This document shows, piece by piece, positions 12,645-34,500 of a stretch of DNA of 64,000 nt. The notes beneath the pieces are model-generated. The model did not search any database. It was not told the DNA's origin and was given only the letters and a program-made list of their open reading frames with translations. Position 1 is the stretch's first letter. The number at the start of each line of letters is the position of its first letter. The position numbers and the translations under genes were made by a program. The stretch spans positions 916,945-980,944 of the forward strand of contig NZ_RBWX01000007.1 in the NCBI RefSeq assembly GCF_003634215.1, read 5' to 3'. The stretch is from Sphingosinicella microcystinivorans. Lineage in GTDB: Bacteria; Pseudomonadota; Alphaproteobacteria; Sphingomonadales; Sphingomonadaceae.

Positions 12645-12657
12645 TGGGGAAGACTTC

Positions 12658-14130: not shown

Positions 14131-14195
14131 TCTTGCGATTTGTTTTTTCTTACAGGAGATCTGGTGCGCACTCGCGTGCCGGCAAAGGAGATGTT

Positions 14196-15074: not shown

Positions 15075-15558
15075 ACACCTGCGGCCAATTCCAACCGGTT
15101 CCAAACCCAGACACGAATCGCCATGGAGTCGACCGAGCCCAAATTTCTTTAGGACTCAAACCAGGGGATGAAAAAGTCACTTGGTGTCGCTATGTCCTTC
15201 TGAAGGGAGATGTCACGAGCTCTCTCGGGCTGTAAATCCGTAACGCCAAACCAACTGAAAAGTTAAGCAATCTTACGATGGATCGACCGATTCGTCTCCG
15301 TATAGCTCATAATTTGGCGGTGGTGCGCGAACTATTCATGCATCGTGGCTGTGTATGCACTTTATCTTGTGCGTGATTTCTTAAGGGAAGCAACCCTCCA
15401 TTTTAATGACCCCTCATAGTCTCAGAACTCTGCGACAGCGAGTGCATCACTGATAGGCTATAAAATTTCCAATCACTCAAATTTTGAATTGACGTAAATG
15501 TTTTACATTGAGATGTTGGCCACCGGGAGAACGGGAATCAGCTCAAGAGGGGGTCTCA
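15075..15558. promoter_or_regulatory. Intergenic promoter region of the second TonB receptor, with two short palindromes
   Basis: No gene is visible in these 484 bp. Near the 3' end lie two neighbouring inverted repeats, TCAAATTTTGA (15477-15487) and GTAAATGTTTTAC (15494-15506), with a TTGACG -35-like hexamer at 15489-15494 between them. They are 50-80 bp before the receptor start and are candidate sites for the XRE-cupin regulator encoded after that receptor. AT content is clearly higher here than in the genes on either side. Confidence 0.4.
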
Positions 15559-17844
15559 ATGAAGACATCGGTCGGGGTCGTTTACGCAGCTGCCATGCTA
15601 TGTGGCACGTCTCATGCCGCAATCGCGCAGGAGCAGGAGGTGCCTGCGGTTGAAGAGATCATCGTCACAGCGCGCCTTCGTTCGGAATCGCTTCAGGATG
15701 TGCCAGCATCGATCTCCGTGTTCGGGGAGAAGGAGATCGAGAACGGCAAGATCGATCGGCCCGGCGATTTCGTGGCGCTGACGCCGAACGTCACCTTCAA
15801 CACCGCGCAGGACGCGGGCACGACGTACCTCGTGGTGCGCGGCGTGACGCAGGTGCCGAACGGCGAGACGCCCGTGGCGGTTTCTGTTGACGGCGTGCTG
15901 CAGACAAGCGCGTTCCAGTTCAATCAGGAGCTGTTCGACATCCAGCAGATCGAGGTGCTGAAGGGGCCGCAAGGCGCGCTTTATGGGCGCAACGCCATCG
16001 CCGGCGCGATCAACATCACCACCAAGCCCGTGACCAACGAATATGAAGGCCGCGTGGCCTTCGGCTACGGAAACGGCGATGCGACGCGCGCCGAGGCTTC
16101 GGTCTCCGGCCCGATCGTCAAGGACAAGCTGCTGTTCCGCGCCGGCATCTCGCACCGTCAGGCCGATGGCTGGATCACCAACACCTTCCTCGATAGGAAG
16201 GTCGACGATTTCCGCAATTTCACCGGCGATCTGAAGCTGCTGTTCAAGCCGAGCGACGTGCTGACCTTCGATCTGCGCGGGCACTATGGCCGCACGACGG
16301 GCGGTGCTGCCTATTTCGTGCGTTCGAGCAATGCCAGCGGCGGCACTGTCATCACCGACGCGCACGGCGTCGCGAACACGGTGATCGCGCCGACGAGCAA
16401 CAACCTTGGTTACAACAAACGCGTCCTCAAGAACGTCTCGCTCAAGGTCGATTACGAAACGGACGCGGGGACATTGTCGTCGATCACGTCCTATGACGAC
16501 GTGTCGATGCTAACGACATTCGATGGCTACGACTATTCGGACAACCAGAATTGCTTCGAGCTGACCGCGCCGCTCTCGACGCCCTATGCCTGCGCGACGC
16601 CGCAGATCACGTTCGGCGGACTTGACGGCGGCACGCCGTTTTTCACGGCGGCGTTCAACACGACGTTCCAGGTGTACGGTCAGCAGAATTTCAGTCAGGA
16701 GCTTCGCTTCACGAGCCCGTCCGAACTGCCGTTCCGCTACATCGTCGGCGCCTATTTCCTAAAGCGCGAGCGCGATCTCGTCACGGCGACACAGGAAGAC
16801 AAGGGCTTCGGGATCATTCCCAAGCTGGACTTCGATCCCGCGACGGCGAACCAGACCCGCGCCTATTTCGAAGAGAACAACGACGACAAGGCCTACGCCG
16901 CATTCGTCCAGGCGAACTACGACCTCACGGATACGCTCGAGCTCTCGGCGGCGATGCGCTACGATGCCGATCACCGCGAGCAGACGGACCCGCGGCCGGA
17001 CGCCTATCGGCTGGACGGCCTCTGGCGGCCGATCACCGATCCGCGCACGCGCAAGGAAAAGTTCGATTCCTGGCAGCCGAAGTTCACAGTGAACTACCGA
17101 CCGCTACAAACGCTTTCATTCTATGCCAGCTACGCCAAGGGCTTCCGTTCAGGCGGCTTCAACGCGGCAGGCACCGAATTCGACCCGTCGAGCGGCACGC
17201 GCGTTGCCGACGCGATCTTCCGCAAGGAGGTTTCGGAGAATTACGAGGCGGGCTTCAAGGCGCAGCCGCTCGGCCGGGTGCTTTCGATCAGCGGCGCGGT
17301 GTTCCGCACCGAGGCGGACGACCTGCAGGTCTTCAACTTCAACGGCGCCGTCAACGCGCAGGTGGTGAACAACATCGATAAGGCCCGCATCACCGGCGCC
17401 GAGTTCGAGTTCCGTGCGCTGCTGCCGGCCGGCTTCGAACTGATGGGCGGCGTCGGCTACATCGACTCCGAAATCCGCCAGTACGACGTGAGCCCTGCGA
17501 CGGTCGGCAACCAGCTTCCCAACATCACCAAGTTCAAAAGCAATCTGTCGCTGCAATATTCGGCAGACATCGGCGACGGCGTGGGGCTGCTAGTGCGCGG
17601 CGACTGGGAGCATCGCGGCAAAACCTATTTCCACGAAGGTGGCACCGCGATCGGTGTGCCGATCCGCGATGCGCTCGACCTGTTCAACGGGCAGATCCGC
17701 ATAAGCCTCGATAGCGGCTGGAGCGCGTCCTTGTGGGGCAAGAACCTGTCGAACAAGAAATACTACGATAAGGTGGTTGTGCCCGATTATAATTTCCAGG
17801 CGCGGCCGCGCAGCTACGGTATCGACGTCATCAAGACGTTCTGA
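15559..17844 (+). CDS. TonB-dependent outer-membrane receptor
   Basis: 761 aa from the ATG at 15559 (AGAGGGGG upstream); an in-frame ATG at 15508 gives an unlikely leader. The signal peptide ends near AAIAQ (about residue 24). The TonB box is VEEIIVTARLR, then come the plug (LKGPQGALYGRNAIAGAINI) and a full barrel ending in IDVIKTF. It stands 44 bp before the XRE-cupin regulator and the HyuAB catabolic genes on the same strand, so its ligand is probably the N-heterocyclic or amide substrate of that operon. Base composition is visibly more GC-rich than in the blocks before 15 kb. Confidence 0.95.
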   Translation: MKTSVGVVYAAAMLCGTSHAAIAQEQEVPAVEEIIVTARLRSESLQDVPASISVFGEKEIENGKIDRPGDFVALTPNVTFNTAQDAGTTYLVVRGVTQVPNGETPVAVSVDGVLQTSAFQFNQELFDIQQIEVLKGPQGALYGRNAIAGAINITTKPVTNEYEGRVAFGYGNGDATRAEASVSGPIVKDKLLFRAGISHRQADGWITNTFLDRKVDDFRNFTGDLKLLFKPSDVLTFDLRGHYGRTTGGAAYFVRSSNASGGTVITDAHGVANTVIAPTSNNLGYNKRVLKNVSLKVDYETDAGTLSSITSYDDVSMLTTFDGYDYSDNQNCFELTAPLSTPYACATPQITFGGLDGGTPFFTAAFNTTFQVYGQQNFSQELRFTSPSELPFRYIVGAYFLKRERDLVTATQEDKGFGIIPKLDFDPATANQTRAYFEENNDDKAYAAFVQANYDLTDTLELSAAMRYDADHREQTDPRPDAYRLDGLWRPITDPRTRKEKFDSWQPKFTVNYRPLQTLSFYASYAKGFRSGGFNAAGTEFDPSSGTRVADAIFRKEVSENYEAGFKAQPLGRVLSISGAVFRTEADDLQVFNFNGAVNAQVVNNIDKARITGAEFEFRALLPAGFELMGGVGYIDSEIRQYDVSPATVGNQLPNITKFKSNLSLQYSADIGDGVGLLVRGDWEHRGKTYFHEGGTAIGVPIRDALDLFNGQIRISLDSGWSASLWGKNLSNKKYYDKVVVPDYNFQARPRSYGIDVIKTF

Positions 17845-17888
17845 GCGGCGTTTGATTGGAATGTGAACAGGTAGGAAGCCGGAGAACC

Positions 17889-18494
17889 ATGGTAAAAGCA
17901 AGTGCCCCGGCGCCGACGAGCGATCCGATGATGTCGTTCGGCGAGCTTCTGCGCAACCGCCGCAAGAAGCTGCGCCTCACGCTCAACGAGGTGGCCATGC
18001 AATCCGGCCTGTCGGTGTCGTTCATATCGCTCGCGGAGCGCGGCAAGGCGACGCCGTCGATCGTGTCGCTATCGCGCATCGCGCAGGCGCTTGACGTCAA
18101 CATCAGCTACTTTCTGGCGCCGCCCCAAACCAACAACATCATGCACCGGGCGGCGGAGCCCGAATATTACCCGATCGATTCCCCGGTCACGTACATCCGG
18201 CTCAGCGCCGGGCATACCAACCAGAAGATGGACAGCTTCATCTTCATCATCCCGCCGGGGCCGATCTTTCCGCGCGTCCACCGCGACGGCGAATCCTTCT
18301 ATTATGTTCTGGAGGGCGAGCTGCATTTCGAGGTGGGCGACGAAAGCTTCGATCTGGGGCCGGGGGACAATCTGCACTTCGACGCGCGGCACAGCTATTC
18401 GATGCAGAATCGCGGCGAGGAACCGGTGAAGGTGCTGTGGGTCGGCACGCCTGTGCTGTTCCCGCCGAGCGAGGAACCGGAGCCTTCGTCGTGA
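17889..18494 (+). CDS. XRE-family regulator with C-terminal cupin
   Basis: 201 aa from the ATG at 17889 (GGAGAA upstream). A Cro/C1-type helix-turn-helix spans about residues 15-75 (LRNRRKKLRLTLNEVAMQSGLS, then RIAQALDVNI). A cupin effector domain follows at about 120-195 (FPRVHRDGESFYYVLEG, then GPGDNLHFDARHSYSMQNRG). This is the PuuR/SutR layout, where the cupin senses a small amine, amino acid or sugar acid. The stop overlaps the GTG of the next cupin gene by 4 bp. As first gene after the receptor it is the most likely regulator of the HyuAB operon. Confidence 0.92.
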   Translation: MVKASAPAPTSDPMMSFGELLRNRRKKLRLTLNEVAMQSGLSVSFISLAERGKATPSIVSLSRIAQALDVNISYFLAPPQTNNIMHRAAEPEYYPIDSPVTYIRLSAGHTNQKMDSFIFIIPPGPIFPRVHRDGESFYYVLEGELHFEVGDESFDLGPGDNLHFDARHSYSMQNRGEEPVKVLWVGTPVLFPPSEEPEPSS

Positions 18495-18796
18495 AGGTCG
18501 TTCCGTCGATCCTCGCCAGTGAAGCCGTTCGGGATCTGGTGGATCATGGCGGCGTGCGGTGCCGAACGATCGTATCCAGTTTCGCGGCGGGGCTTCGCGT
18601 TCCAGAGGACGGTTTCAGCGTTCACGACGTCACCGAAATCTCGCTCATTCTTTCGGGGTCATTCGATCTCGAAAGCGGAGGCGAGCTGACCCGCCTGAAC
18701 GAGGGCGATCTCGTCATGGTTCCGCCCGGCGAGCCGCACTTCTTCCACGTCCGTGCCGACACACGGATCTTCACGCTCACCATAGGCGACGCCTGA
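18491..18796 (+). CDS. Small single-domain cupin protein
   Basis: 101 aa if started at the GTG at 18491, whose GTGA overlaps the stop of the XRE-cupin gene. An in-frame ATG at 18437 would overlap that gene by 58 bp. The sequence is one cupin barrel (HDVTEISLILSGSFDLE, then LNEGDLVMVPPGEPHFFHV). There is no signal peptide and no recognisable catalytic partner domain. Translational coupling to a regulator that itself ends in a cupin suggests a ligand-binding helper or an isomerase/dioxygenase of the pathway. The function is unknown. Confidence 0.82.
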   Translation: MKVVPSILASEAVRDLVDHGGVRCRTIVSSFAAGLRVPEDGFSVHDVTEISLILSGSFDLESGGELTRLNEGDLVMVPPGEPHFFHVRADTRIFTLTIGDA

Positions 18797-18828
18797 AGCG
18801 GCGCGCCTGAACGTTCGGGAGTACAGAC

Positions 18829-20895
18829 ATGCGCGTGGCCACCGATGTTGGAGGCACCTTCACCGATCTCGTCTGCTATGATGTGGACAAGGCAAGCGGG
18901 CGGGTGGTGGGTCTGCGGACCGCCAAGACCGACACGACCTATCCGCAGTTCGATCAGGGCGTGATGAACGCCGTCGCCAAGGCGGGGCTCGATCCGGCGC
19001 AGTTCGATTTCTTCGCACACGGCACCACCGTGGTCATCAACGCGCTGCTGTCGCGTAAGGGTTCCAAAACCGCCCTGATCACCACGAATGGCTTCCGCGA
19101 CGTTCTGGAAATCGCGCGCGGCAACCGGCCCGATCTGTTCAATCTCGCCTTCAAGAAGCCGGAGCCGTTCGTGCCGCGTTACCTGCGCCGCGAGGTCGAC
19201 GAGCGCAGCAGCTATCTCGGCGACGTGATGACGCCGCTCGATCCCTCAGGGCTCGATCCCATACTGGAGGATTTCCGCAAGGAGGGTGTCGAGGCGATCG
19301 CGCTCTGTTTCCTTCACGCCTATGTTTCGCCGGAAAACGAGATCATCGCGCGCGATTATATCCTTGCGCGCTGGCCGGAGGTTTCCGTGATCGCCTCGCA
19401 CGAGATCTCGCGCGAATGGCGCGAGTATGAGCGCACGTCGACTGCGGTGCTCACCGCCTATGTGCATCCCGCCGCCAAGCGCTATCTCGAAACGCTCGGC
19501 CGCAGCCTGGATGCCGCGGGCTATCCGCATCAGCCCTATATCATGCAGTCGAACGGCGGCATCGATACGGTGGAAGGCGCGGTGCGCAATCCAATCGCGA
19601 TGGTCGAATCCGGACCCGCGAGCGGTGTGCTCGGTGCTGCGGCGCTCGGGCGCCTGCTAAGCGAAGACAAGATCATCGCGCTCGACATCGGCGGTACCAC
19701 CGCAAAATGCTCGCTGATCGAGAATGCGAAGACGCGGATCACCACCGAATACCGGATCGAATGGTCGCGCACCAATCCGGGCTATCCGATCCGCACGCCG
19801 GTCATCGAGATCGTCGAGATCGGCAATGGCGGCGGATCGATCGCGGGTATCGATCAGGGCGGACGGCTCTATGTCGGCCCCGAGAGCGCCGGCGCTTCGC
19901 CGGGTCCGGCCGCCTACGGGCGCGGCGGCACGCGCCCGACGACGACCGACGCCAACCTCGTCACCGGCCGCATCAACCCCGCGAACTTCCTTGGCGGCGA
20001 GATCGAACCCGACATGGAGAACGTGAAGGCGGCCTTCGCCCCGCTCACCGAGAAGCTCGGCGGGGACATGGCGGCGGTGGCGCGCGGTATCATCCGCATT
20101 GCCAACGCCAACATGGTGAACGCGCTGAAGCTCGTGTCGCTCAACAAGGGCTACGATCCGCGCGAGTTCACGCTCGTCGCCTACGGCGGCGGCGGCGCCA
20201 TGCACGCGGTGATGCTCGCCGAGGAGCTGCAGATTCCCAAGGTGATCATCCCGACCAATTCGTCGGTGTTCTCCGCGTGGGGCATGTTGATGACCGACAT
20301 GCGGCGCGATTTCGTCCGCACGCAGGTGGTGCCGCTCGCAGTCGAGAACAGCGCGCGCATCGAAAGCCTGTTCGTGGAGATGGCGGACGCCGCGAAGGCG
20401 AGCTTCGCGTCCGAGGCCGGGGCGGGCAAGCTGCCGCTGCGGCTCCAGCGTTTCGCCGACATGCGCTATCTCGGGCAGGAGCACAGCGTGAAGGTGGAAC
20501 TGCCCGACGTCGCCTTCGACGCGACGACGGTCGCCGCCGCGGCCGAACGCTTCCACACCACGCACGAGCGCGAGTACACGTTCCGCCTCGATCTGCCGGT
20601 GGAGATCGTGAACTTCCACCTCGTCGCGCTCGGCGACGTGCCGAAGCACGAGCCCGAGAAGCTCACCGCCACCGGCAAGGTGCCCGCGACGGCGATCGTC
20701 AGCGAGCGCACGGTCGATTTCGACGAGCAAGGCATCCACGCGGCGAGCATCTACGATCGCGACCGGCTGGAACCGGGCATGACGTTCACCGGCCCCTGTA
20801 TCGTCGAGGAGGCGGCGGCGACGCTCGTCGTCACCCCCGGCCGGCGCGTCGTCGTCGACGACTACGGCAACCTCCACGTCCATCTGAACGGCTGA
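18829..20895 (+). CDS. hyuA: Hydantoinase/oxoprolinase family protein, subunit A
   Basis: 688 aa, usual HyuA length. The ASKHA-type ATP-binding motifs are DVGGTFTDLV (about 6-15) and LDIGGTTAKCSL (about 285-296), with GGGGAMHAV further on. GGGAG lies upstream of the ATG. The family (N-methylhydantoinase A, 5-oxoprolinase, acetophenone carboxylase, caprolactamase CapA) couples ATP hydrolysis to opening of a lactam or imide, or to carboxylation, by phosphorylating an amide or enol oxygen. It acts with HyuB, which follows after 11 bp. In this operon an ATP-driven lactam or cyclic-imide opening is the most economical reading. Confidence 0.94.
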   Translation: MRVATDVGGTFTDLVCYDVDKASGRVVGLRTAKTDTTYPQFDQGVMNAVAKAGLDPAQFDFFAHGTTVVINALLSRKGSKTALITTNGFRDVLEIARGNRPDLFNLAFKKPEPFVPRYLRREVDERSSYLGDVMTPLDPSGLDPILEDFRKEGVEAIALCFLHAYVSPENEIIARDYILARWPEVSVIASHEISREWREYERTSTAVLTAYVHPAAKRYLETLGRSLDAAGYPHQPYIMQSNGGIDTVEGAVRNPIAMVESGPASGVLGAAALGRLLSEDKIIALDIGGTTAKCSLIENAKTRITTEYRIEWSRTNPGYPIRTPVIEIVEIGNGGGSIAGIDQGGRLYVGPESAGASPGPAAYGRGGTRPTTTDANLVTGRINPANFLGGEIEPDMENVKAAFAPLTEKLGGDMAAVARGIIRIANANMVNALKLVSLNKGYDPREFTLVAYGGGGAMHAVMLAEELQIPKVIIPTNSSVFSAWGMLMTDMRRDFVRTQVVPLAVENSARIESLFVEMADAAKASFASEAGAGKLPLRLQRFADMRYLGQEHSVKVELPDVAFDATTVAAAAERFHTTHEREYTFRLDLPVEIVNFHLVALGDVPKHEPEKLTATGKVPATAIVSERTVDFDEQGIHAASIYDRDRLEPGMTFTGPCIVEEAAATLVVTPGRRVVVDDYGNLHVHLNG

Positions 20896-20906
20896 AGGAT
20901 CCTTCC

Positions 20907-22580
20907 ATGAAAACCGATCCCTACACGCTCGAGATCATCAAGAACGCGCTCGTCGCGATCGGCGACGAGATGTTCCTGACGATGGCGCGGACCAGCATGA
21001 GCCCGATCATTTACGAGGCGCTCGATTTCTCGGTGGGCATCACCGATGCGAAGGGCGAGCTCATTGCGCAGGGGCAGGGCACCACCGTGCTCCTCGCGAT
21101 GATCGACAGCTTCGTGCGCGACATCCTCGAAAAGTTCGGCGACGCCGGCATTCGCGAAGGCGACGTCTACATCGGCAACGATCCCTATCGCGGCGGCGGC
21201 ACGCACCTTTCCGATTTCGGCATCGCCACACCGATCTTCCACGACGGCACGCTCGTCGCCTTCGCGGTGAACAAGGCGCACTGGCTCGATGTCGGCGGCG
21301 CCGTGCCGGGCAGCTTCTCGACGAATGCCACGGAGATCTTCCAGGAAGGCATCCAGATGCCGATCTGCAAGATCATCGATGCGGGCACGCTGCGCCAGGA
21401 CATTCTCGACATCATCATCGCCAACATCCGCGTGCCGCAGGAAAGCGTCGGCGACATGTGGGCGGGCGTCGCCGCGAACGGCGTCGCCGAACGCCGCGTG
21501 CGCGAGCTGTTCGACAAATATGGCCACGATGCGGTGCTGGCCGCGAAGGACGAGCTGCTCGACTACGGCGAGGCAATGGTGAAGCACGAGCTCGCCGGCC
21601 TGCCGAAGGGCGAGTTCTTCGCCGAGGATCTGATCGACGACGACGGCCGCAGCGACACGCCGCTAAAAGTGATGGTGAAGGTGACCATCACCGACGACAA
21701 GTTCATCGCCGACTTCTCCGGCAGCGCGCCGCAGACGCTGGGGCCGATCAACAATTCGCGCACCGGGCTCACCTCCGCCGTGCGTCTGATCTTCAAGGCG
21801 ATCACCAATCCGCAGGTGCCCGCGAACAGCGGCTCGTTCCGTCCGATCGAGATCATCTGCCCGGACAAGACGGTGTTCACGGCGGAGAGGCCCGCGCCGG
21901 TTTCGACCTATTGGGAAACGCTGATGTACGGCGTCGACCTCATCTGGCGCGCACTCGCGCCGCATGTGCCGGACCGGCTCGGCGCGGGGCACATGCTGTC
22001 CGTCTGCTCGGTCGTTTTCGCCGGCACACACGCGGACAGCGGCAAGAACACGATCCTCGTACAGCCGCTCGTCGGCGGCTGGGGCGGCGGCACGGGCAAG
22101 GACGGCGAATCCGGGCAGTTCGCGGCGGCCGACGGCGAGACGTACAACGTGCCCATCGAGATCACAGAGGCACGCTACGGCGTCCACGTCGATCAATACG
22201 CCTTCCACAACGAAGACGGCGGCCACGGCGAATTCCGCGGCGGCAAGGGCGTTGTGCTCGATTATCGGATGCGCACCGACGACTTCACCGTCACCGGCAG
22301 CTTCGGGCGTTTCAAGTACCCCGCCTGGGGCATGGCCGGTGGACACGACGGATCGCCCAACCACCTCGACATCATCCGCGCCGACGGCACGCGCGAGGTG
22401 CACGGCAAGGTGACGGGGGCGAAACTCGCCAAGGGCGATGTCGTGCGCATGGTGACGGCGACCGGCGGCGGCTGGGGCGATCCGAAGGCGCGCCCGAAGG
22501 CGGCGATCGCCGAAGACCTGCGCAACGGCTTCCTGACCGAGGAGCAGGCGGAACGCTATTATGGCGGCCTGCCGGGCTGA
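20907..22580 (+). CDS. hyuB: Hydantoinase/oxoprolinase family protein, subunit B
   Basis: 557 aa from the ATG at 20907, 11 bp after hyuA. Family motifs include LEIIKNALVAIGDEM near the start, YIGNDPYRGGGTHLSDF (about 90-106), and the Gly-rich C-terminal GGWGDPKARP. It is the hydrolytic partner of HyuA, and the two together make the ATP-dependent lactam/hydantoin hydrolase or a related carboxylase. Because of high GC, a longer overlapping open frame runs back to 19707, but it enters hyuA out of frame and is not the gene. The stop overlaps the region where the next gene can begin. Confidence 0.94.
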   Translation: MKTDPYTLEIIKNALVAIGDEMFLTMARTSMSPIIYEALDFSVGITDAKGELIAQGQGTTVLLAMIDSFVRDILEKFGDAGIREGDVYIGNDPYRGGGTHLSDFGIATPIFHDGTLVAFAVNKAHWLDVGGAVPGSFSTNATEIFQEGIQMPICKIIDAGTLRQDILDIIIANIRVPQESVGDMWAGVAANGVAERRVRELFDKYGHDAVLAAKDELLDYGEAMVKHELAGLPKGEFFAEDLIDDDGRSDTPLKVMVKVTITDDKFIADFSGSAPQTLGPINNSRTGLTSAVRLIFKAITNPQVPANSGSFRPIEIICPDKTVFTAERPAPVSTYWETLMYGVDLIWRALAPHVPDRLGAGHMLSVCSVVFAGTHADSGKNTILVQPLVGGWGGGTGKDGESGQFAAADGETYNVPIEITEARYGVHVDQYAFHNEDGGHGEFRGGKGVVLDYRMRTDDFTVTGSFGRFKYPAWGMAGGHDGSPNHLDIIRADGTREVHGKVTGAKLAKGDVVRMVTATGGGWGDPKARPKAAIAEDLRNGFLTEEQAERYYGGLPG

Positions 22581-22596
22581 GCGGAACGGACGGATC

Positions 22597-23820
22597 GTGA
22601 CCCTCATCCTCAACAACTGCACCGTCTTCGACGGTGTGGGGGATACGCTCCTGCCCGGGCGCAGCCTTGTGATCCGCGCTGGACGTATCGCGGAGATCCA
22701 CGAGCAGCCCCAAAGCAGCGGTGCCGCGCGCGTGATTGATGTGGGCGGCCGCACCGTGATGCCCGGGCTGATCGACGCGCATTTCCACGCCTATGCGGCG
22801 GAGGTGAATCTCGGCGTGCTCGATCGTATGCGCCCGGGCCTCCGCGCGCTTTATGCGCGGCGCGCGCTCGAAGAGGCGCTGCAGCGAGGCTTCACGTCGG
22901 TTCGCGATGCGGCGGGCGGCGATATCACGCTCGCCATGGGCATCGAACGCGGGCTCATCCGAGGCCCGCGCTTCTTTTACTCCGGCTTCGCGCTCAGCCA
23001 GACGGGCGGGCACGGCGACATGCGCGGTTCGGGCATCGAATGCGGCTGCGCCTATTGCGGATCGCTGACCATGCTCGCGGACGGCGTGGATGAAGTGCGC
23101 AAGGCGGCGCGCGAGCAGCTCCGTCTTGGCGCCACGCAGGTGAAGCTGTTCCTCTCCGGCGGCGTTGCCTCGCCCTCCGATCCCTACTGGATGGCTCAGT
23201 ATTGCGACGAGGAGATCGCTGCCGCCGTGCACGAGGCAGCGACGCGCCGCACCTATGTGATGGCGCACGCGCACACGGCGGATGCGGTGATGCGCTGCAT
23301 CCGCTCCGGTGTGCGGTCGATCGAACACGCGACGATGCTGGACAAGGAAACCGCGCAGGCCGTGGCGGACGCGGACGATGTCTATGCCGTGCCGACGCTG
23401 GTGACATTGCGCAAGCTGATCGATGAAGGCGCGGCGCTCGGCCTGTCTCCGGTCAGCCTCGCGAAGACGGTGGAGGTTGAGAAGCACGCGCTGCACTCGC
23501 TCGATCTGCTGCAGGCAAGCGGCGCGCGGATCGGCTTCGGCTCCGATCTGCTCGGGCCGTTGATGGCGCATCAGTTGGAGGAGTTCCTGCTGCGCCGCGA
23601 GGTGATGTGCGCGGCGGACATCCTCCGCTCGGCAACCTCAATAAATGCTGCGCTCCTCAACAAGGCGGACGAACTGGGCGCGATCCGGCCGGGCTATCTG
23701 GCTGACATCCTCGTGGTGGACGGTGATCCGCTGGCGGACATCGGCATCCTCGCGCGGCCCGAGGCGCTCCTGATGGTGATGAAGGACGGCGCAGTGCACA
23801 AGAATGCGCTCCCCGCGTGA
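22597..23820 (+). CDS. Amidohydrolase family protein (prolidase/imidazolonepropionase-like)
   Basis: 407 aa from the GTG at 22597 (GACGGATC upstream); the in-frame ATG at 22561 would overlap hyuB by 20 bp. The metal-binding HxH is in GLIDAHFHAY (about 60-69). Lys in VKLFLSGG, two further His (MAHAHT, IEHATM) and the Asp of GFGSDLLG complete the binuclear site. The layout matches the Xaa-Pro dipeptidase-like and arginine-carboxypeptidase-like amidohydrolases. It would hydrolyse an amide, possibly the acyclic product of HyuAB or an N-acyl imino acid. There is no signal peptide. The stop overlaps the cyclophilin start by 4 bp (GTGA). Confidence 0.9.
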   Translation: MTLILNNCTVFDGVGDTLLPGRSLVIRAGRIAEIHEQPQSSGAARVIDVGGRTVMPGLIDAHFHAYAAEVNLGVLDRMRPGLRALYARRALEEALQRGFTSVRDAAGGDITLAMGIERGLIRGPRFFYSGFALSQTGGHGDMRGSGIECGCAYCGSLTMLADGVDEVRKAAREQLRLGATQVKLFLSGGVASPSDPYWMAQYCDEEIAAAVHEAATRRTYVMAHAHTADAVMRCIRSGVRSIEHATMLDKETAQAVADADDVYAVPTLVTLRKLIDEGAALGLSPVSLAKTVEVEKHALHSLDLLQASGARIGFGSDLLGPLMAHQLEEFLLRREVMCAADILRSATSINAALLNKADELGAIRPGYLADILVVDGDPLADIGILARPEALLMVMKDGAVHKNALPA

Positions 23821-24344
23821 GTGAAGTCGCCGATCGCCGGGTTCTGATCAGCACGCCGCTTGGCGACATGCGCGTTCATGTCGACGTGGCACATGCGCCC
23901 GAGACTGCCGGCTATTTCCTGCGCGACGTTGTCGCCGGCCTCTTCGACGGCACGAGCTTCTACCGCATCGCGACCGATGCCAATCAGGACGACGATCAGC
24001 CGGTGACGATCGAGGTAGTGCAGGGTGGTGTTCGGCAGCCCGAGGTGGCGCCCGCGCCCAGTCTGCGGCACGAATCCACGGCGGAAACCGGGCTTCGCCA
24101 CAAACGCGGCACGATTTCCCTCGCGCGGTTCGCGCCGGGCGCCGTGTACCACAGCTTCTTTATCTGCCGGCGCGACGAGCCTTCGCTCGACCACGGCGGC
24201 GCGCGGCAACCCGACGGGCAGGGCTTCCCCGCCTTCGGACGGCTCGAGGAGGGGTTCGACGTGCTTGACAGGCTCTTCGAAGCCGCCGAAGCGCGGGAAC
24301 TGCTTTCGACCGAAATCCCGATCTTGCGGATCCGCCTGCTGTGA
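23817..24344 (+). CDS. Cyclophilin-type peptidyl-prolyl cis-trans isomerase
   Basis: 175 aa from a GTG that shares GTGA with the previous stop. A single cyclophilin domain covers almost the whole protein: LFDGTSFYRI with the catalytic Arg at about 50, a VVQGG segment (the Gln site), LRHKRGTISLAR and SFFIC with the Phe of the hydrophobic pocket, then FGRLEEGFDVLDRL. The Trp of human CypA is absent, as in many bacterial forms. There is no signal peptide, so it is cytoplasmic. Its location inside a catabolic operon, overlapped at both ends, is unusual. It could isomerise an imide bond to proline or pipecolate in the substrate, or fold a partner enzyme. Confidence 0.88.
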   Translation: MSEVADRRVLISTPLGDMRVHVDVAHAPETAGYFLRDVVAGLFDGTSFYRIATDANQDDDQPVTIEVVQGGVRQPEVAPAPSLRHESTAETGLRHKRGTISLARFAPGAVYHSFFICRRDEPSLDHGGARQPDGQGFPAFGRLEEGFDVLDRLFEAAEARELLSTEIPILRIRLL

Positions 24345-25282
24345 GTTCGATACCCTATCTCGATGCCGCGACCGTGGATCGGCTGCTCGCCTGGCCCGCG
24401 CTCATAGATGCCCTGCGCGCGGCGTTCATCGCGCCGCCGATCGCGCCTCCGCGCACGGCGATCAGCTACGGCGAGCAGGGCGACCAGCATTTCCTGGTGA
24501 TGCCCGCCGTCAATCCCGAAGGCCTCATCGGCGTCAAGCTGGTGAGCGTGCATCCGGCGCTCGCCGCGCGTCCGGGCGGCGCGGTGCGGGGGCTCTATGT
24601 CGCGCTCGATGCGGCGACGGGCGAGCCGCGCGCGCTCGTCGACGGCCCCGCACTCACCGAGCGCCGCACGGCGGCCGCCTCGGTTCTCGCCGCGCAGACG
24701 CTCGCGCGGCCCGGCGCATCGGTTCTGCTGGTGGCGGGGACCGGGCAGGTCGCGCACGCGCTTTGCCGTTGCTATGCCGAGGTCGTTCGCCCGCAGCGCA
24801 TCATGGTCTGGGGGCGGCGCAGCGAAGCGGCGGACGCCATGGCCGCGCATCTCCAAGCCGAAGGGGTTTCCGTGCAGCCTGTGCGGGATCTCGGCGAGGC
24901 CGTGCGCGGCGCGGACATCGTCAGCGTCGCGACCCTGTCCACCACGCCGCTGATCCGCGGCGCCGATGTTCGCCCGGGCACGCACATCGATCTCGTCGGC
25001 GGCTTCACGCCCTCGATGCGCGAGGCGGACGATGCGCTCGTCGCGCGCGCCGTCATCGTCGCCGATGGACCCGGCGCGCTGGATACGGCGGGCGATCTCA
25101 CCCAGCCCATCGCGGCAGGCCTCGTGGACCGGGCCACGGTGAAGCTGTTCGACGACATCCTCGCCGGCCGCGCCGAAGGCAGGCGAAACGACGACGAGAT
25201 AACGCTGTTCAAGTCCGTCGGCCTCGCGCTCGAAGACCTCGCCGCCGCCGAACTGCTGCTGGCGCGGTGGGAGGCGCCATGA
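24341..25282 (+). CDS. Ornithine cyclodeaminase/mu-crystallin family protein
   Basis: 313 aa from a GTG overlapping the cyclophilin stop. The family fold is recognised by YGEQGDQHFLVMPA near the start, VKLVSVHP (about 65-72), the NAD(P)-binding VAGTGQVAHAL (about 131-141) and DLVGGFTPSMREAD. Members include ornithine cyclodeaminase, L-alanine dehydrogenase and the ketimine reductase mu-crystallin, which reduces piperideine-2-carboxylate to L-pipecolate. Given the AmaA- and AmaB-like genes next door, the ketimine reductase role is the best fit. Ornithine to proline is the alternative. Its stop overlaps the next ATG (ATGA). Confidence 0.9.
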   Translation: MSSIPYLDAATVDRLLAWPALIDALRAAFIAPPIAPPRTAISYGEQGDQHFLVMPAVNPEGLIGVKLVSVHPALAARPGGAVRGLYVALDAATGEPRALVDGPALTERRTAAASVLAAQTLARPGASVLLVAGTGQVAHALCRCYAEVVRPQRIMVWGRRSEAADAMAAHLQAEGVSVQPVRDLGEAVRGADIVSVATLSTTPLIRGADVRPGTHIDLVGGFTPSMREADDALVARAVIVADGPGALDTAGDLTQPIAAGLVDRATVKLFDDILAGRAEGRRNDDEITLFKSVGLALEDLAAAELLLARWEAP

Positions 25283-26556
25283 CCGTCGACCGCGATCCGC
25301 TGTCGCACGGCCTGTGGGCGGCAAGCGCGCCGCCCGCGCCGAAAACCGCGCCCCTCATCGGCGACACGCGGACCGACGTCGCCGTCGTCGGCGCGGGATA
25401 CACGGGCCTGTCGGCGGCGCTGCATCTTGCCGAAGCCGGTGCCAGCGTCGTCGTTCTCGAAGCCGCCGGCATCGGATACGGCGGTTCGGGGCGCAACGTC
25501 GGCCTCGTCAACGCGGGCCTGTGGCTGCCGCCCGACGAGGTCGTGCGCCGGATGGGTGCGGGCGATGGGGAGCGCCTGATCGGTGCGCTCGGCGAAGGCC
25601 CCGACCTTGTCTTCGAAAGCATCGGCCAGCACGGCATCGCTTGCGAGCCGGTTCGCGCCGGCACGCTCCACTGTGCCGTGGGACGCGGCGGCGAACGCGA
25701 TCTCGAACGCCGCCATGCGCAGTGGGCCGCGCGCGGCGCGCCGGTACGGCTGCTGCGCGGGGATGAAGCCCGTACCGCGATCGGCAGCGACGCCTACGGC
25801 GCGGCGCTGCTGGATGCGCGGGCCGGAACCATTCAGCCGCTCGCCTACGCGCGCGGGCTCGCGACGGCGGCGATCGCGACGGGCGCAGTGATCCATGAAG
25901 CGAGCCCCGTCACCGCCTGCACCGAACGCGGGCCACACATGCGGCTCGAAACCGCATTGGGCGCCGTCACCGCCGCGCATGTGATCCTGGCCACCAATGC
26001 CTATACCGGTGGCCTGTGGGGCGAGTTACGCACCGAGCTTGCCGGTCTGCCTTATTTCAATCTGGCCACGGCGCCGCTTTCGGACGTCGCACTCGGCAGC
26101 GTCCTGCCTGGAAAACAGGGTGCGTGGGATACGCGGCAGATCCTCAGTTCCTTCCGGCTGGATGCGGCCGGGCGCCTCGTCGTCGGCAGCGTCGGCGCGC
26201 TGCGCGGTGCATCGCGCGCCGCACACCGAAACTGGGCGCGGCGTACGCTCGCGCGGATATTCCCGCAGCTCGGGCCCATCGATTTCGAATATGAGTGGTA
26301 CGGTACGATCGGCATGACCACCGACGCGCTGCCCCGTTTCCACAGGATGGGGCGCGTGCTCGGCATCTCGGGCTACAACGGCCGCGGCATTGCGCCCGGC
26401 ACGGTGTTCGGCAAGGCGCTGGCTCGGTATCTGCTGCACGGCGAGGCGTTGCCGCTTCCGGAAACGCCATTCGCGCGCATACTGCTGCGCCGCGTGCGGG
26501 AGCAGGTTTACGAGCACGGCGCAGGCATCGCGCACGCGCTGGGCGAGCGGTTCTGA
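25279..26556 (+). CDS. FAD-dependent amine/imino-acid oxidase, AmaA-like (DAO fold)
   Basis: 425 aa from the ATG at 25279, overlapped with the previous stop. The DAO-fold FAD site is VAVVGAGYTGLSAALHLAEAG (about 35-55) with EA at the end of the second strand and GYGGSGRNVGLVNAG after it; the C-terminal FAD loop is ISGYNGRGIAPGT. The length matches the Pseudomonas putida L-pipecolate oxidase AmaA and also gamma-glutamylputrescine oxidases. The AmaB-like gene 20 bp downstream supports L-pipecolate to piperideine-6-carboxylate. The ORF track frame extends far upstream, but that part is out-of-frame shadow over the ornithine cyclodeaminase gene. Confidence 0.88.
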   Translation: MTVDRDPLSHGLWAASAPPAPKTAPLIGDTRTDVAVVGAGYTGLSAALHLAEAGASVVVLEAAGIGYGGSGRNVGLVNAGLWLPPDEVVRRMGAGDGERLIGALGEGPDLVFESIGQHGIACEPVRAGTLHCAVGRGGERDLERRHAQWAARGAPVRLLRGDEARTAIGSDAYGAALLDARAGTIQPLAYARGLATAAIATGAVIHEASPVTACTERGPHMRLETALGAVTAAHVILATNAYTGGLWGELRTELAGLPYFNLATAPLSDVALGSVLPGKQGAWDTRQILSSFRLDAAGRLVVGSVGALRGASRAAHRNWARRTLARIFPQLGPIDFEYEWYGTIGMTTDALPRFHRMGRVLGISGYNGRGIAPGTVFGKALARYLLHGEALPLPETPFARILLRRVREQVYEHGAGIAHALGERF

Positions 26557-26576
26557 AAAGAAGAGGAGAGGGGCGC

Positions 26577-28109
26577 ATGGGTTCCAAGGAACTCGATCTG
26601 AAGGCGGAAATTCGCGAGCTTCTTATGGCGCTGGGCGTGAACGCCGCCGAAGGCCCGCTTCGCGTACACTCACCGATCTCCGGCGAGGAGGTCGCTTCCG
26701 TCGCCGTTCACGACGCGGAGACCGTGGAGGCCACGGTCGGCGCCGCGCACGCGGCCTTCCTGCTCTGGCGCGATGTTCCCGCGCCGCGTCGTGGCGAACT
26801 CGTCCGCCTGCTCGGCGAGGAGCTTCGCGCCCACAAGACGGCGCTCGGCCGGCTGGTCTCGATCGAGGTCGGCAAGAGCGTGTCGGAAGGTCTCGGCGAA
26901 GTGCAGGAGATGATCGACATCTGCGATTTCGCGGTCGGCCTTTCGCGTCAACTCTACGGCCTTACCATCGCGACCGAGCGGCCCGATCACCGGATGATGG
27001 AAACCTGGCATCCGCTCGGCGTTACCGGGATCATCTCCGCGTTCAATTTCCCCGTCGCGGTATGGGCGTGGAACGCCGCGCTCGCGCTGGTGTGCGGCAA
27101 CGCCATTGTCTGGAAGCCGTCCGAAAAGGCGCCCATCTCGGCGCTCGCGGTTCAGGCCTTGCTGAACCGCGTCCTCGTCCAGTCGGGAGCTCCCGATGGC
27201 CTCGCCGGGCTCGTGATCGGCGGGCGGGAAGTCGGGGAGGCTTTGGTCGACGATCCGCGCGTCCCGCTCGTCTCGGCGACAGGCTCCACCGAAATGGGCA
27301 GGAAGGTCGGCCAGCGGCTCGCCGGCCGCTTCGGCCGCGCTATTCTGGAGCTGGGCGGCAACAACGCCGCCATCGTCACGCCCAGCGCCGATCTCGATCT
27401 CGCGCTGCACGGCGTCGCCTTCGCGGCCATGGGAACGGCAGGCCAGCGATGCACGACACTGCGCCGGCTGTTCGTGCACGAGACGATCTACGATGGCTTC
27501 GTCGCCCGGCTGAAATCCGTCTATGCATCGGTCAGCGTCGGCAATCCCCTCGTCGAGTCCAATCTGGTCGGACCGCTCATCGATGGCCGGGCGCTGGAGT
27601 CCATGCGCCATGCACTGGAAACGGCGGCCGCGTCGGGCGGTGTCGTAACGGGCGGCGAGCGTGTCGAGATCGGCGGCTGGCCCGATGCCGCCTATGTCCG
27701 CCCGGCTATGGTGGAGATGGCCTCTCAGGATGGTCCCGTATTGCAGGAGACCTTCGCGCCGATTCTCTATGTGATGCGCTACACGCATCTTGCGGACGCC
27801 ATCGCGCTCAACAATGCCGTCAGCCAGGGCCTGTCCTCGTCGATCTTCACCACCAACATGCGGGAGGCTGAACGCTTCCTCTCTGGGCGTGGTTCAGATT
27901 GCGGGATAGCCAACGTCAACATCGGAACGTCGGGCGCGGAGATCGGTGGTGCGTTCGGCGGCGAGAAGGAAACCGGCGGCGGCCGAGAATCGGGCTCGGA
28001 TTCCTGGAAGGCCTACATGCGCCGCGCTACCAACACCATCAACTATGGCGCTACCCTGCCGCTGGCGCAGGGCGTGACATTTGACGTTAATCCCGATCAC
28101 GTCGAGTAA
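26577..28109 (+). CDS. amaB: Aldehyde dehydrogenase, ALDH7 type (aminoadipate-semialdehyde dehydrogenase, AmaB-like)
   Basis: 510 aa; AGGAGAGG precedes the ATG. General-base Glu about 258 (LELGGNNAA) and catalytic Cys about 292 (GQRCTTLRR). The C-terminal stretch NIGTSGAEIGGAFGGEKETG, followed by GGRESGSDSWKAYMRR, is the signature of antiquitin/ALDH7A1 and bacterial AmaB (PcD), which oxidise alpha-aminoadipate semialdehyde (in equilibrium with piperideine-6-carboxylate) to L-alpha-aminoadipate. It is the last gene of the operon. Of all genes here it gives the clearest hint about the pathway: lysine or pipecolate-type C6 imino acids. Confidence 0.9.
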   Translation: MGSKELDLKAEIRELLMALGVNAAEGPLRVHSPISGEEVASVAVHDAETVEATVGAAHAAFLLWRDVPAPRRGELVRLLGEELRAHKTALGRLVSIEVGKSVSEGLGEVQEMIDICDFAVGLSRQLYGLTIATERPDHRMMETWHPLGVTGIISAFNFPVAVWAWNAALALVCGNAIVWKPSEKAPISALAVQALLNRVLVQSGAPDGLAGLVIGGREVGEALVDDPRVPLVSATGSTEMGRKVGQRLAGRFGRAILELGGNNAAIVTPSADLDLALHGVAFAAMGTAGQRCTTLRRLFVHETIYDGFVARLKSVYASVSVGNPLVESNLVGPLIDGRALESMRHALETAAASGGVVTGGERVEIGGWPDAAYVRPAMVEMASQDGPVLQETFAPILYVMRYTHLADAIALNNAVSQGLSSSIFTTNMREAERFLSGRGSDCGIANVNIGTSGAEIGGAFGGEKETGGGRESGSDSWKAYMRRATNTINYGATLPLAQGVTFDVNPDHVE

Positions 28110-28370
28110 GATTTCCAATAGGCTTCCCGAAGCCACCACCCGATGGCCCGTGATCGCAGTCGATAGGGCATAACGGGGGGGAAATGCGGAAAGGGGATGA
28201 ACGTTGTGGTTGTCTAGGCAGAGCCAGTGTTGGTTGGAGGATGGTGTGGTGTTGGCCGCGCAAGGTGCGCTCGGTCTCGAACTCAACCGCATGAGAGAAC
28301 TGGATTCTCTGTGCGTGTCAGCACGGACCTATTTCGTCGCCGCGCCGCTACTTTGGAAAAGGAGCAGCGA
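28110..28370. other. Gap between convergent AmaB-like and amine dehydrogenase-like genes
   Basis: 261 bp without a supportable gene. Short overlapping frames exist on both strands but none shows a ribosome site or family motif. No strong terminator hairpin was seen. Confidence 0.4.
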
Positions 28371-30440: not shown

Positions 30441-30520
30441 AACGTCTCCCGCTCGCAAGGACGGCTTGCCGCCCTCCACCTCTCGCCAATTGCTTTGTGC
30501 GCGAACGACCCAAACCTGTG

Positions 30521-30576
30521 CAAGGCCGATTGTTGCAATATCTGAACTTTTTAATTAAAATCAAGGCAATTGTTGC
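30521..30576. promoter_or_regulatory. Direct repeats and AT palindrome upstream of the amine dehydrogenase-like gene
   Basis: CAAGGCCGATTGTTGC (30521-30536) and CAAGGCAATTGTTGC (30562-30576) form an imperfect direct repeat; their shared ATTGTTGC cores start exactly 40 bp apart. Between them lies the perfect palindrome TTTTAATTAAAA (30549-30560). AraC-family activators bind direct repeats, and an AraC gene lies upstream on the same strand. The sites are about 80-135 bp before the ATG at 30440. Confidence 0.5.
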
Positions 30577-30675
30577 GTTTTGGTTTCTCACTGAAGGTGC
30601 GGTGTTTGGGAAAAAGTGGCTGATCTTGGGGAGTTTTGCAGCCTGGCCGCAGAGTTGCGGCCTTATGGGGTATAT

Positions 30676-30895
30676 TCACATGCGGCGGTGGGGCGCGCGA
30701 CCGCTGCCATCGTGAAGCTGTCCACTCGTGTGGTCGATCGCGCCGGATAAGATGCGTTCTGTCCAGCACGCGGTTTTCGGGGACATCAAACCGGTCGCGA
30801 TACAGCCTATTGTCCCGAGGCTCGCCGGTTCCCAATATATGGTCGAGATCGAGGCCGCCGCAGTCTTTGAGGGGGCGAAGGAGAGCCCGTCCTGA
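30676..30895 (+). pseudogene. RidA/YjgF-family relic, frameshifted
   Basis: Read on the plus strand, 30676-30747 encodes a segment like the middle of RidA proteins (RATAAIVKLSTRVVDRAG, then a stop). After a one-base shift the frame from about 30740 continues with the RidA C-terminal half: DKMRSVQHAVFGDIKP, then PIVPRLAGSQYMVEIEAAAVF, with the characteristic VEIEA, ending at TGA 30893-30895. The N-terminal third is not recognisable. RidA proteins hydrolyse enamines/imines formed by amine-processing enzymes, so its presence beside amine-type oxidoreductases makes sense. The relic suggests the function was lost or is supplied elsewhere. Confidence 0.55.
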
Positions 30896-30947
30896 AATGT
30901 CGGGTTGCCAATCCGCTCGCCAGGGATTTCAGCCTGCAGGTTTCGGG

Positions 30948-33100: not shown

Positions 33101-33129
33101 GCCGATGCTCTCATAGGGGAGAATTGAAC

Positions 33130-33873: not shown

Positions 33874-33931
33874 GGCAAAATTGGGAAGTGAAACAAGGAA
33901 GCGCGTGGCAGAGCTATTCTCACCGTGCGGT

Positions 33932-34438: not shown

Positions 34439-34471
34439 GCTTCTATGAGGCTGTCATTCCTGCATGGTGCC

Positions 34472-34486
34472 GTTGAAAGCGTCAAC
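34472..34486. promoter_or_regulatory. Inverted repeat before the MarR-like gene
   Basis: GTTGAAAGCGTCAAC has perfect 5-bp arms around AAGCG and lies between the NTF2-like stop and the MarR-like start. Its position suggests an autoregulatory operator. Confidence 0.4.
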
Positions 34487-34500
34487 CTGTGCACGGGGCC

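What the first reader, a model, noticed from the sequence alone, without database searches (positions are those of the whole stretch)
17889..28109. HyuAB-amidohydrolase-cyclophilin-OCD-AmaA-AmaB operon: a possible new lactam/imide to pipecolate pathway
Ten same-strand genes including the receptor, most with 4-bp overlaps, combine an ATP-dependent ring opener (HyuAB family, which includes 5-oxoprolinase and caprolactamase), an amidohydrolase, and three enzymes that match piperideine-2-carboxylate reductase, L-pipecolate oxidase and aminoadipate-semialdehyde dehydrogenase. I know of no described pathway with this set. It predicts that a cyclic amide of a C6 amino or imino acid is the source compound.
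Basis: partly seen in the sequence, partly recalled or inferred. Interest (0 to 1): 0.72.

Follow-up and report, generated by a model that had tools for sequence, protein, structure and literature searches.

The report
Probable pipecolate cyclic-dipeptide breakdown operon
A ten-gene run in a sphingomonad-like bacterium looks like a machine for eating small ring-shaped dipeptides that contain a proline-like amino acid: it would spend ATP to open the ring, straighten the kinked peptide bond, cut the dipeptide and burn the released pipecolate.

Summary
The ten-gene run is real and most assignments hold: the last gene passes NCBI's L-piperidine-6-carboxylate dehydrogenase model, and the FAD oxidase groups with L-pipecolate oxidases (AmaA), not PuuB. 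Only 4 of 9 junctions are 4-bp overlaps.

The amidohydrolase is a COG1228 prolidase-type enzyme (relatives cleave Xaa-Pro and N-acyl-proline; one homologue is an L-pipecolate acylase). Relatives of this HyuAB recur beside proline-peptide genes: COG1228 prolidase, unrelated M24 Xaa-Pro peptidase, this cyclophilin, proline dehydrogenase. Such genes lie near 19 of 35 HyuAB loci found by HyuB similarity, against 1 of 37 other HyuAB loci. Prolidase and cyclophilin also pair without HyuAB in four loci.

Best reading: HyuAB opens an imino-acid cyclic dipeptide with ATP; the cyclophilin turns the cis dipeptide to trans; the prolidase cuts it; here the imino acid is pipecolate, burned by AmaA and AmaB (with a ketimine reductase) where some relatives carry proline enzymes. 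The complete pipecolate version was seen in one genome only. No substrate is shown. Genes for cyclic-dipeptide breakdown were not found described in the literature searched.

The parts
15559..17844 (+). TonB-dependent receptor (probable uptake of the compound)
   Evidence: PF00593/PF07715; a TBDR lies upstream of HyuAB in most of the related clusters of Gram-negatives fetched
17889..18494 (+). XRE-cupin regulator, PuuR-like architecture
   Evidence: PF01381 + PF07883; best NCBIfam PuuR, under cut-off (51 vs 211 bits); similar regulator (30 and 32%) before HyuAB in Neobacillus and Parageobacillus
18491..18796 (+). small cupin protein (GTG start), role unknown
   Evidence: PF07883; small cupin beside HyuA in several related clusters
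18829..20895 (+). HyuA, ATP-using subunit of the predicted cyclic-dipeptide opener
   Evidence: PF05378/PF01968/PF19278; DVGGTFTD@6, DIGGTTAK@286, GASPGP@355 present, corresponding to the ATP motifs described for CapA in PMC8453981 (passages)
20907..22580 (+). HyuB, metal-site hydrolytic subunit
   Evidence: PF02538; EALDFS@37, THLSDFG@99, AHWLD@124 correspond by position and context to the Asp-His-Asp-His metal site of CapB (PMC8453981 passages)
22597..23820 (+). COG1228/M38 prolidase-type amidohydrolase (GTG start; ATG at 22561 possible)
   Evidence: closest solved structures 3mkv E 7.3e-102 and 3feq E 1.5e-97, next 9.4e-50; NCBIfam Xaa-Pro dipeptidase best, under cut-off
23817..24344 (+). 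cyclophilin-type peptidyl-prolyl isomerase (GTG start), predicted cis/trans isomerase for the Xaa-imino acid bond
   Evidence: PF00160; the Arg known as catalytic (recalled) and the following Gln are in 16 of 16 aligned rows including E. coli PpiB, QGG in 13 of 16
24341..25282 (+). OCD-family ketimine reductase (Pyr2C/Pip2C reductase-like, GTG start)
   Evidence: NF004793 318 vs cut-off 322; best PDB hit Delta1-pyrroline-2-carboxylate reductase 6t3e 4e-37
25279..26556 (+). AmaA-type L-pipecolate oxidase
   Evidence: NF050086 best, under cut-off; tree
26577..28109 (+). AmaB-type ALDH7, L-piperidine-6-carboxylate / aminoadipate-semialdehyde dehydrogenase
   Evidence: NF050084 810 vs cut-off 730; nearly full-length alignment to ALDH7-type structures 6dbb, 6rtr, 10fm, 4pxn and antiquitin 2jg7, with the C-terminal SGAEIGGAFGGEK-TGGGRESGSD stretch kept with at most a few changes in 5 of 5

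Best explanation
A catabolic operon for a 2,5-diketopiperazine (cyclic dipeptide) that contains an imino acid. Steps: (1) the TonB receptor brings the compound in; (2) HyuAB, spending ATP, hydrolyses the secondary amide and releases the linear dipeptide Xaa-imino acid; both amide bonds in the ring are cis, so the product starts as the cis conformer; (3) the cytoplasmic cyclophilin converts it to trans; (4) the COG1228 prolidase, which like other prolidases should need the trans bond (recalled), cuts it; (5) the imino acid, in this genome L-pipecolate, is oxidised by AmaA to L-piperidine-6-carboxylate and by AmaB to 2-aminoadipate; the OCD reductase returns Delta1-piperideine-2-carboxylate (from D-pipecolate or stray oxidation) to L-pipecolate. 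Shown by sequence: families, motifs, gene order, association with proline-peptide genes. Inferred: the substrate, the order of steps, and the isomerase's role. My estimates: imino-acid cyclic dipeptide for the HyuAB-cyclophilin-prolidase part 0.65; pipecolate oxidation for the tail 0.85; both parts acting on one compound 0.5.
For: Neighbourhoods of loci picked by HyuB similarity alone: 19 of 35 carry a COG1228 prolidase, M24 Xaa-Pro peptidase, this cyclophilin or proline dehydrogenase, against 1 of 37 other HyuAB loci (rule-based recount; Fisher p 5e-7, and 2.5e-6 for 16 of 31 after collapsing near-copies). The M24 and proline-dehydrogenase query sequences came from three of the test loci themselves; with the window's own prolidase and cyclophilin as the only queries it is 10 of 35 against 0 of 37 (p 3e-4). 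Two unrelated Xaa-Pro peptidase families recur (COG1228 and M24). Proline-burning genes inside such clusters: Parageobacillus plasmid NC_015665 (racemase, MFS, XRE, HyuA, HyuB, cupin, Xaa-Pro peptidase, PruA, proline dehydrogenase), Muricauda, G389 and G345 with PutA-type fusions; the ALDHs of Parageobacillus and Muricauda pass P5C-dehydrogenase models (917 vs 648; 755 vs 614) and the G389 fusion a PutA model (1384 vs 747), while the window's ALDH passes the P6C model. ABC transporters with substrate-binding protein, two permeases and two ATPases (peptide-type by my reading) flank HyuAB-Xaa-Pro peptidase in Ketogulonicigenium. The 9 best cyclophilin hits in 396 genomes, the window's own included, lie in HyuAB clusters; receptor-prolidase-cyclophilin runs without HyuAB in 4 loci. 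COG1228 prolidases 3MKV/3FEQ cleave Xaa-Pro and N-acyl-proline, and a homologue is an L-pipecolic acid acylase (PMC11511702, passages). The genome has a separate PutA, so the AmaA/AmaB pair is not needed for proline.
Against: No substrate was tested. The complete tail (OCD-AmaA-AmaB) was seen behind HyuAB in one genome only; the near-identical MAG contig ends inside OCD, and S. formosensis has the unit with no tail within about 8 kb downstream and 4.6 kb upstream (the rest of that genome was not searched), so tail and ring opener may serve different compounds. 16 of the 35 loci picked by HyuB similarity show no proline gene by my thresholds (some are cut by contig ends). 6 of 6 plasmid-borne prolidase neighbourhoods opened have no HyuAB, cyclophilin or AmaA. 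AmaA and OCD are under their NCBIfam cut-offs. Cis/trans exchange of Xaa-Pro dipeptides is fast enough without a catalyst (seconds to minutes, recalled) that an isomerase is helpful, not essential. In another alphaproteobacterium AmaA-HyuA-HyuB sit together without a prolidase in the stretch held (L189).
Confidence: 0.5

Rival explanations
1. Two functions on one transcript: a proline-cyclic-dipeptide unit (receptor to cyclophilin) whose proline goes to the genome's PutA, with a lysine/pipecolate-degradation module (OCD-AmaA-AmaB) appended by recombination.
For: S. formosensis has the unit without an adjacent tail; AmaA's nearest kin in the tree are alphaproteobacterial AmaA-like proteins of other families, several of them paired with AmaB; a separate PutA exists in the genome; OCD and AmaA are the most GC-rich genes of the ten (0.72, 0.71) against 0.62-0.67 for the other eight.
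Against: The 4-bp overlaps cyclophilin/OCD and OCD/AmaA; proline versions of the cluster carry a matching dehydrogenase pair or fusion in the same cluster, which suggests one pathway.
Confidence: 0.22
2. Pyroglutamyl-imino acid route: the prolidase cuts pGlu-Pro or pGlu-Pip and HyuAB, as a 5-oxoprolinase, opens the released 5-oxoproline.
For: COG1228 prolidases accept N-acyl-proline (PMC11511702 passages); HyuAB belongs to the 5-oxoprolinase/lactamase family.
Against: M24 Xaa-Pro peptidases, which need a free amino end (recalled), stand in the place of the COG1228 enzyme in several clusters; a separate fused 1201-aa HyuA-HyuB protein exists in this genome and open frames of that size are common among the HyuB hits listed for the order, so a dedicated 5-oxoprolinase may already be there (inference: NCBIfam gave it only caprolactamase and carboxylase models below cut-off).
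Confidence: 0.1
3. Bicyclic hydantoin of proline or pipecolate: HyuAB gives N-carbamoyl-imino acid, which the amidohydrolase cleaves.
For: Hydantoin-type racemase and NCS1 (hydantoin/allantoin-type) permease recur in related clusters; classical HyuAB are hydantoinases (recalled).
Against: No HyuC-type carbamoylase among the 30 neighbours scanned with Pfam; M24 peptidases and a cyclophilin have no clear use for carbamoyl-proline; multi-part ABC transporters of peptide type (my reading) occur.
Confidence: 0.07
4. One reading: lysine lactam, caprolactam or 6-oxopipecolate opened by HyuAB.
For: HyuA and HyuB score best against caprolactamase models; the tail is C6.
Against: Scores 481 and 274 against cut-offs of 1000; gives no role to prolidase and cyclophilin, which are recurrent partners.
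Confidence: 0.06

Closest known systems
CapAB, ATP-dependent caprolactamase of Pseudomonas jessenii (PMC6061476, PMC8453981; passages read)
   Same: Two-subunit HyuA/HyuB build, ATP motifs and Asp-His-Asp-His metal site
   Different: Far below the caprolactamase cut-offs; partners here are prolidase and cyclophilin; the known pathway goes on with an aminotransferase (abstract passage)
COG1228 prolidases Sgx9260b/c (3MKV, 3FEQ) and L-pipecolic acid acylase LpipACY
   Same: Closest solved relatives; reported to act on Xaa-Pro and N-acyl-proline, the homologue named an L-pipecolic acid acylase (PMC11511702, passages)
AmaA/AmaB, L-pipecolate branch of lysine catabolism in Pseudomonas (with DpkA)
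   Same: AmaA-AmaB pair, ALDH7 over the P6C cut-off, ketimine reductase in front
   Different: Here placed after a ring opener and a prolidase, and without lysine racemase or D-lysine aminotransferase in the operon; the two gene names are used the other way round in PMC6667623 (passage)
Hydantoin-utilisation (hyu) operons
   Same: HyuA-HyuB; relatives add a hydantoin-type racemase and NCS1 permease
   Different: Xaa-Pro peptidase instead of the N-carbamoylase (recalled as HyuC); neither racemase nor NCS1 in the window's own operon
Bacterial breakdown of diketopiperazines (PMC3852281)
   Same: The predicted overall reaction, ring to dipeptide to amino acids
   Different: The passages seen name strains but no genes and say that it remains unclear which enzymes act

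Membership tests
HyuAB / ATP-dependent lactamase family | Hydant_A_N, Hydantoinase_A and Hydantoinase_B domains; ATP motifs in A; Asp-His-Asp-His in B | tested here: met
   no direct alignment to CapB numbering was made beyond the phmmer alignment to 6yra_B
HyuAB / ATP-dependent lactamase family | ATP-dependent opening of a cyclic amide | not testable with these tools
   needs an enzyme assay
Caprolactamase CapAB | NCBIfam NF050156 and NF050157 cut-offs (1000 bits each) | tested here: not met
   481 and 274 bits
COG1228/M38 prolidase | Full-length match to Sgx9260b/c | tested here: met
   alignment over 2-405 and 5-392 of 407; HFH@62 and HAH@224 present; metal ligands recalled, not mapped on a structure
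COG1228/M38 prolidase | NCBIfam Xaa-Pro dipeptidase NF051886 cut-off | tested here: not met
   225 vs 500 bits; the model name points to a Caulobacter-type enzyme
Cyclophilin PPIase | PF00160 and the catalytic Arg (recalled) | tested here: met
Pyr2C/Pip2C reductase (OCD family) | NCBIfam NF004793 cut-off | tested here: inconclusive
   317.9 vs 322 bits; a relative beside HyuAB (L020) passes with 346
AmaA L-pipecolate oxidase | Tree position with AmaA, away from PuuB and other DAO enzymes | tested here: met
   PuuB and own paralogue L007 lie across a 100/99 branch; but the fork that joins over-cut-off AmaA with the window's side is 86/92, not starred
AmaA L-pipecolate oxidase | NCBIfam NF050086 cut-off 600 | tested here: not met
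   454 bits; 0 of 196 genomes of the order pass, 8 of 299 in the phylum sample do
AmaB / ALDH7 P6C dehydrogenase | NCBIfam NF050084 cut-off 730 | tested here: met
   810 bits; ALDH7-type structures are the best PDB hits

The most novel reading that the evidence does not exclude
This is one form of a widespread, undescribed bacterial gene system for eating proline-type cyclic dipeptides: an ATP-driven ring opener of the HyuAB family, a dedicated cyclophilin that repairs the cis peptide bond left by ring opening, and an Xaa-Pro peptidase, with the last two enzymes chosen according to the imino acid (proline in some relatives, pipecolate here). It would give a prolyl isomerase a metabolic job, and would supply missing genes of diketopiperazine breakdown in Pseudomonadota, Bacteroidota and Bacillota.
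Probability: 0.45. Interest if true: 0.8.

Novelty: new variant of a known kind. Interest (0 to 1): 0.6.

Why it matters
Cyclic dipeptides are abundant natural products, signals and food constituents; a 2013 study states that the enzymes that hydrolyse them are unclear (PMC3852281, passages), and a 2018 paper only remarks that some '5-oxoprolinase' genes may be cyclic-dipeptide hydrolase genes (PMC6061476, passage). The clusters found here turn that remark into a testable gene set with named partners. Full-text searches for such genes showed no description in the titles and abstract starts listed: 25 listed of 29 papers; 23 of 24; 20 of 179; 10 of 190; 40 of 574; 4 of 4; the unlisted papers were not seen, and subscription papers and preprints are mostly not held. 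If the cyclophilin works as proposed, it is a prolyl isomerase in small-molecule catabolism, which a specialist would find surprising.

Tried and rejected
Lactam reading: rejected as best explanation because of the prolidase and cyclophilin association and the failed caprolactamase cut-offs. Polyamine-oxidase reading of the FAD enzyme: rejected by tree. AmaA next to HyuAB in another class member (L189): HyuAB there is 32-36% identical and the neighbouring ORFs look like gamma-glutamyl/N-methylglutamate-type genes (own reading of ORF starts, not family-tested), so it was not used as support. Contexts of plasmid-borne prolidases (6 regions opened of 66 records: Skermanella, Paraburkholderia, Pseudoroseomonas, a Comamonadaceae, Caballeronia, Streptomyces) showed no HyuAB, cyclophilin or AmaA in the annotation nor by tblastn: a result against a fixed tie of the prolidase to HyuAB. 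The Paraburkholderia region does hold a proline racemase family protein, an FAD-dependent oxidoreductase not alike to the window's AmaA at E 1e-6, and a cupin. Aminobacter plasmid HyuAB lies beside phosphonate genes, without proline genes, and was counted as negative. Promoter and terminator scan gave nothing above shuffles. Structure prediction was not run.

Row handling: in the oxidase tree hits under 330 aa, identical rows or rows with stops were dropped (49 rows kept); in the HyuB tree hits under 450 aa, identical rows or rows with stops were dropped (85 rows kept; L027, L110 and L227 are not in it). Thresholds for counting a neighbour: COG1228 or cyclophilin at least 38%, M24 at least 30%, proline dehydrogenase at least 25% identity over at least 140 aa; L030 (prolidase 36%), L057 and L065 (fragments) and L063 (cyclophilin 35%) therefore count as negative; L240 counts as positive on an M24 gene in pieces. 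The labels were entered by hand and reproduced by rule. M24 and proline-dehydrogenase queries were taken from test loci L027, L102 and L103. The 37 controls were 33 chosen by hand from the list plus the four HyuAB paralogues of the window's genome. The 16-of-31 count removes L021, L028, L102 and L058 as near-copies. Of the 19 best cyclophilin hits, wide contexts (7-20 kb, the window itself included) were seen for 17 (not G032 and G104): 11 lie with HyuAB, 3 with a prolidase but no HyuAB (G015, G027, G072), 3 with neither (G048, G093, G335); G095, lower in the list, was added because a prolidase was seen beside it. All 30 loci laid were looked at within 1.5 kb.
Full report
Observation. The window lies in a 3.96-Mb, 15-contig genome. 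Ten + strand genes run from 15559 to 28109. Gaps are 44, -4, 32, 11, 16, -4, -4, -4 and 20 bp, so 4 of 9 junctions are 4-bp overlaps. A MAG contig named Sphingosinicella sp. carries the same order at 89-99% protein identity and ends inside OCD; Sphingomonas formosensis carries receptor, regulator, cupin, HyuA, HyuB, amidohydrolase and cyclophilin at 64-92% and then runs into what I read as cydDC and cydAB genes.

The tail. The ALDH passes the L-piperidine-6-carboxylate dehydrogenase model (810 vs 730 bits) and aligns over nearly its full length with ALDH7-type structures. The oxidase scores best against pipecolate_AmaA (454 vs cut-off 600). In a 49-row tree it sits in a starred set of 14 rows (99/98) with relatives of 49-63% identity, in one larger group (86/92, not starred) with eight AmaA proteins that pass the cut-off; E. 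coli PuuB and the paralogue L007 fall on the other side of a 100/99 branch, and paralogues L008 and L009, on long branches, just outside. AmaA and AmaB are adjacent in 6 of the 8 over-cut-off loci within the 1.5 kb seen and in several of the other loci; in family f8, AmaA lies beside an OCD gene in 9 of 13 loci. The OCD protein is 4 bits under the Pyr2C/Pip2C reductase cut-off. Pseudomonas uses the same reductase-oxidase-dehydrogenase series from D-lysine (PMC6667623, figure-legend passage). NF050084 passes in 90 of 196 genomes of the order; AmaA-like proteins at E 1e-100 or better occur in 15 of 196, none over the cut-off, the window's being the best.

The front part. The amidohydrolase is closest to 3mkv (7.3e-102) and 3feq (1.5e-97), the next structure being at 9.4e-50. 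[quoted passage not shown] HyuA and HyuB keep the ATP and metal motifs described for CapAB but miss the caprolactamase cut-offs by far.

Neighbourhoods. Relatives of the window's HyuB were taken by similarity alone from genome contigs (12 loci), from 396 genomes of the order (all 20 non-window hits at E 1e-150 or better, 17 regions) and from plasmids (6 opened of 42 records). Of these 35 loci 19 carry a COG1228 prolidase, an M24 Xaa-Pro peptidase, this cyclophilin or a proline dehydrogenase; of 37 other HyuAB loci 1 does (a PutA-like gene in L200) (recount). Fisher p is 5e-7, or 2.5e-6 for 16 of 31 after removing near-copies. Because some query sequences came from the test loci, the stricter figure uses only the window's prolidase and cyclophilin as queries: 10 of 35 against 0 of 37, p 3e-4. 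In an 85-row HyuB tree (quick method) 30 of 31 rows with such genes lie in a 50-row group (support 89) and 1 of the 35 rows outside it has them; the smallest starred sets around the window (2, 3 and 5 rows) are all of this kind. That tree includes loci found through the cyclophilin, so the counts by HyuB similarity are the fairer test.

The imino acid. Several clusters contain the enzymes that burn proline: Parageobacillus plasmid pGEOTH01 (PruA and proline dehydrogenase right after HyuA-HyuB-cupin-Xaa-Pro peptidase), two closely alike Muricauda-type genomes (M24 peptidase, racemase, P5C dehydrogenase, OCD, NCS1, proline dehydrogenase), G389 and G345 (PutA-type fusions of 1217 and 1185 aa beside cyclophilin, HyuAB and prolidase; the G389 fusion passes a PutA model). 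The window has AmaA and AmaB in the same role. Since the genome has a separate PutA (1378 vs 747 bits), the pair points to pipecolate.

The cyclophilin. Among 396 genomes the nine best hits (E 1.5e-41 or better, the window's own included) lie in HyuAB clusters, as do G345 and G389 further down; of the 17 of the best 19 whose wide context was seen, 11 lie with HyuAB, 3 with a prolidase but no HyuAB, and 3 (G335, G048, G093) with neither. In G015, G027, G072 and G095 a same-strand run of receptor, COG1228 prolidase and cyclophilin stands without HyuAB within about 9 kb. So the isomerase goes with the prolidase as much as with HyuAB. The Arg known as catalytic (recalled) and the following Gln are kept in 16 of 16 aligned rows. 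This fits chemistry: both amides of a diketopiperazine are cis, ring opening leaves a cis Xaa-imino acid bond, and prolidases need trans (the last point recalled; the search listed two papers, neither on it by title and abstract).

Verdict. The operon is best read as the pipecolate form of a recurrent imino-acid cyclic-dipeptide utilisation system. Shown: gene content, motifs, associations. Inferred: substrate, reaction order, isomerase role. Weak points: one complete example of the pipecolate tail, 16 of 35 HyuAB relatives without proline genes nearby by my thresholds, plasmid prolidases without HyuAB (6 of 6 opened), no assay.

Literature. The library was searched ten times. PMC3852281 says that it remains unclear which enzymes hydrolyse diketopiperazines, and PMC6061476 suggests in one sentence that some 5-oxoprolinase genes may be cyclic-dipeptide hydrolase genes; passages of both were read. 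No paper with a HyuAB-prolidase-cyclophilin operon was seen in the listings, several of which were capped.

Noticed in passing
window 6609-7484: Tyrosine-recombinase-like ORF with Arm DNA-binding and core-binding domains but no catalytic domain matched in the open frame; perhaps an integrase remnant upstream of a lower-GC stretch. No tRNA gene found in the window.
   Followed up: partly
window 1-15500 and 28200-36000 against 17889-28109: GC 0.58-0.59 on both sides, 0.67 in the operon; six other stretches of the genome 0.62-0.65. The flanks, at least as much as the operon, look unusual.
   Followed up: partly
window 8549-15074: Another same-strand run: TonB receptor, GMC oxidoreductase, aldehyde dehydrogenase, alpha/beta hydrolase; looks like a separate alcohol/ester catabolic set.
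   Followed up: no
L055, L102, L061, L024, L064: Beside HyuAB clusters, a second recurrent set: short HyuA-like protein (about 520 aa) + DUF917/S-Me-THD protein, with a TonB receptor and in some a racemase nearby.
   Followed up: no
L163 (own genome C1:446000-465900): A HyuAB paralogue with TonB receptor and an OCD-like gene (35%) nearby.
   Followed up: no
L023, L063, L102: Avidin-like proteins (about 260-270 aa) near HyuAB clusters, in L023 and L063 beside a pepsin-like aspartyl protease.
   Followed up: no
L189:703-5716: AmaA-like oxidase, HyuA and HyuB in one run with 4-bp overlaps in another alphaproteobacterium, HyuAB only 32-36% identical to the window's.
   Followed up: partly
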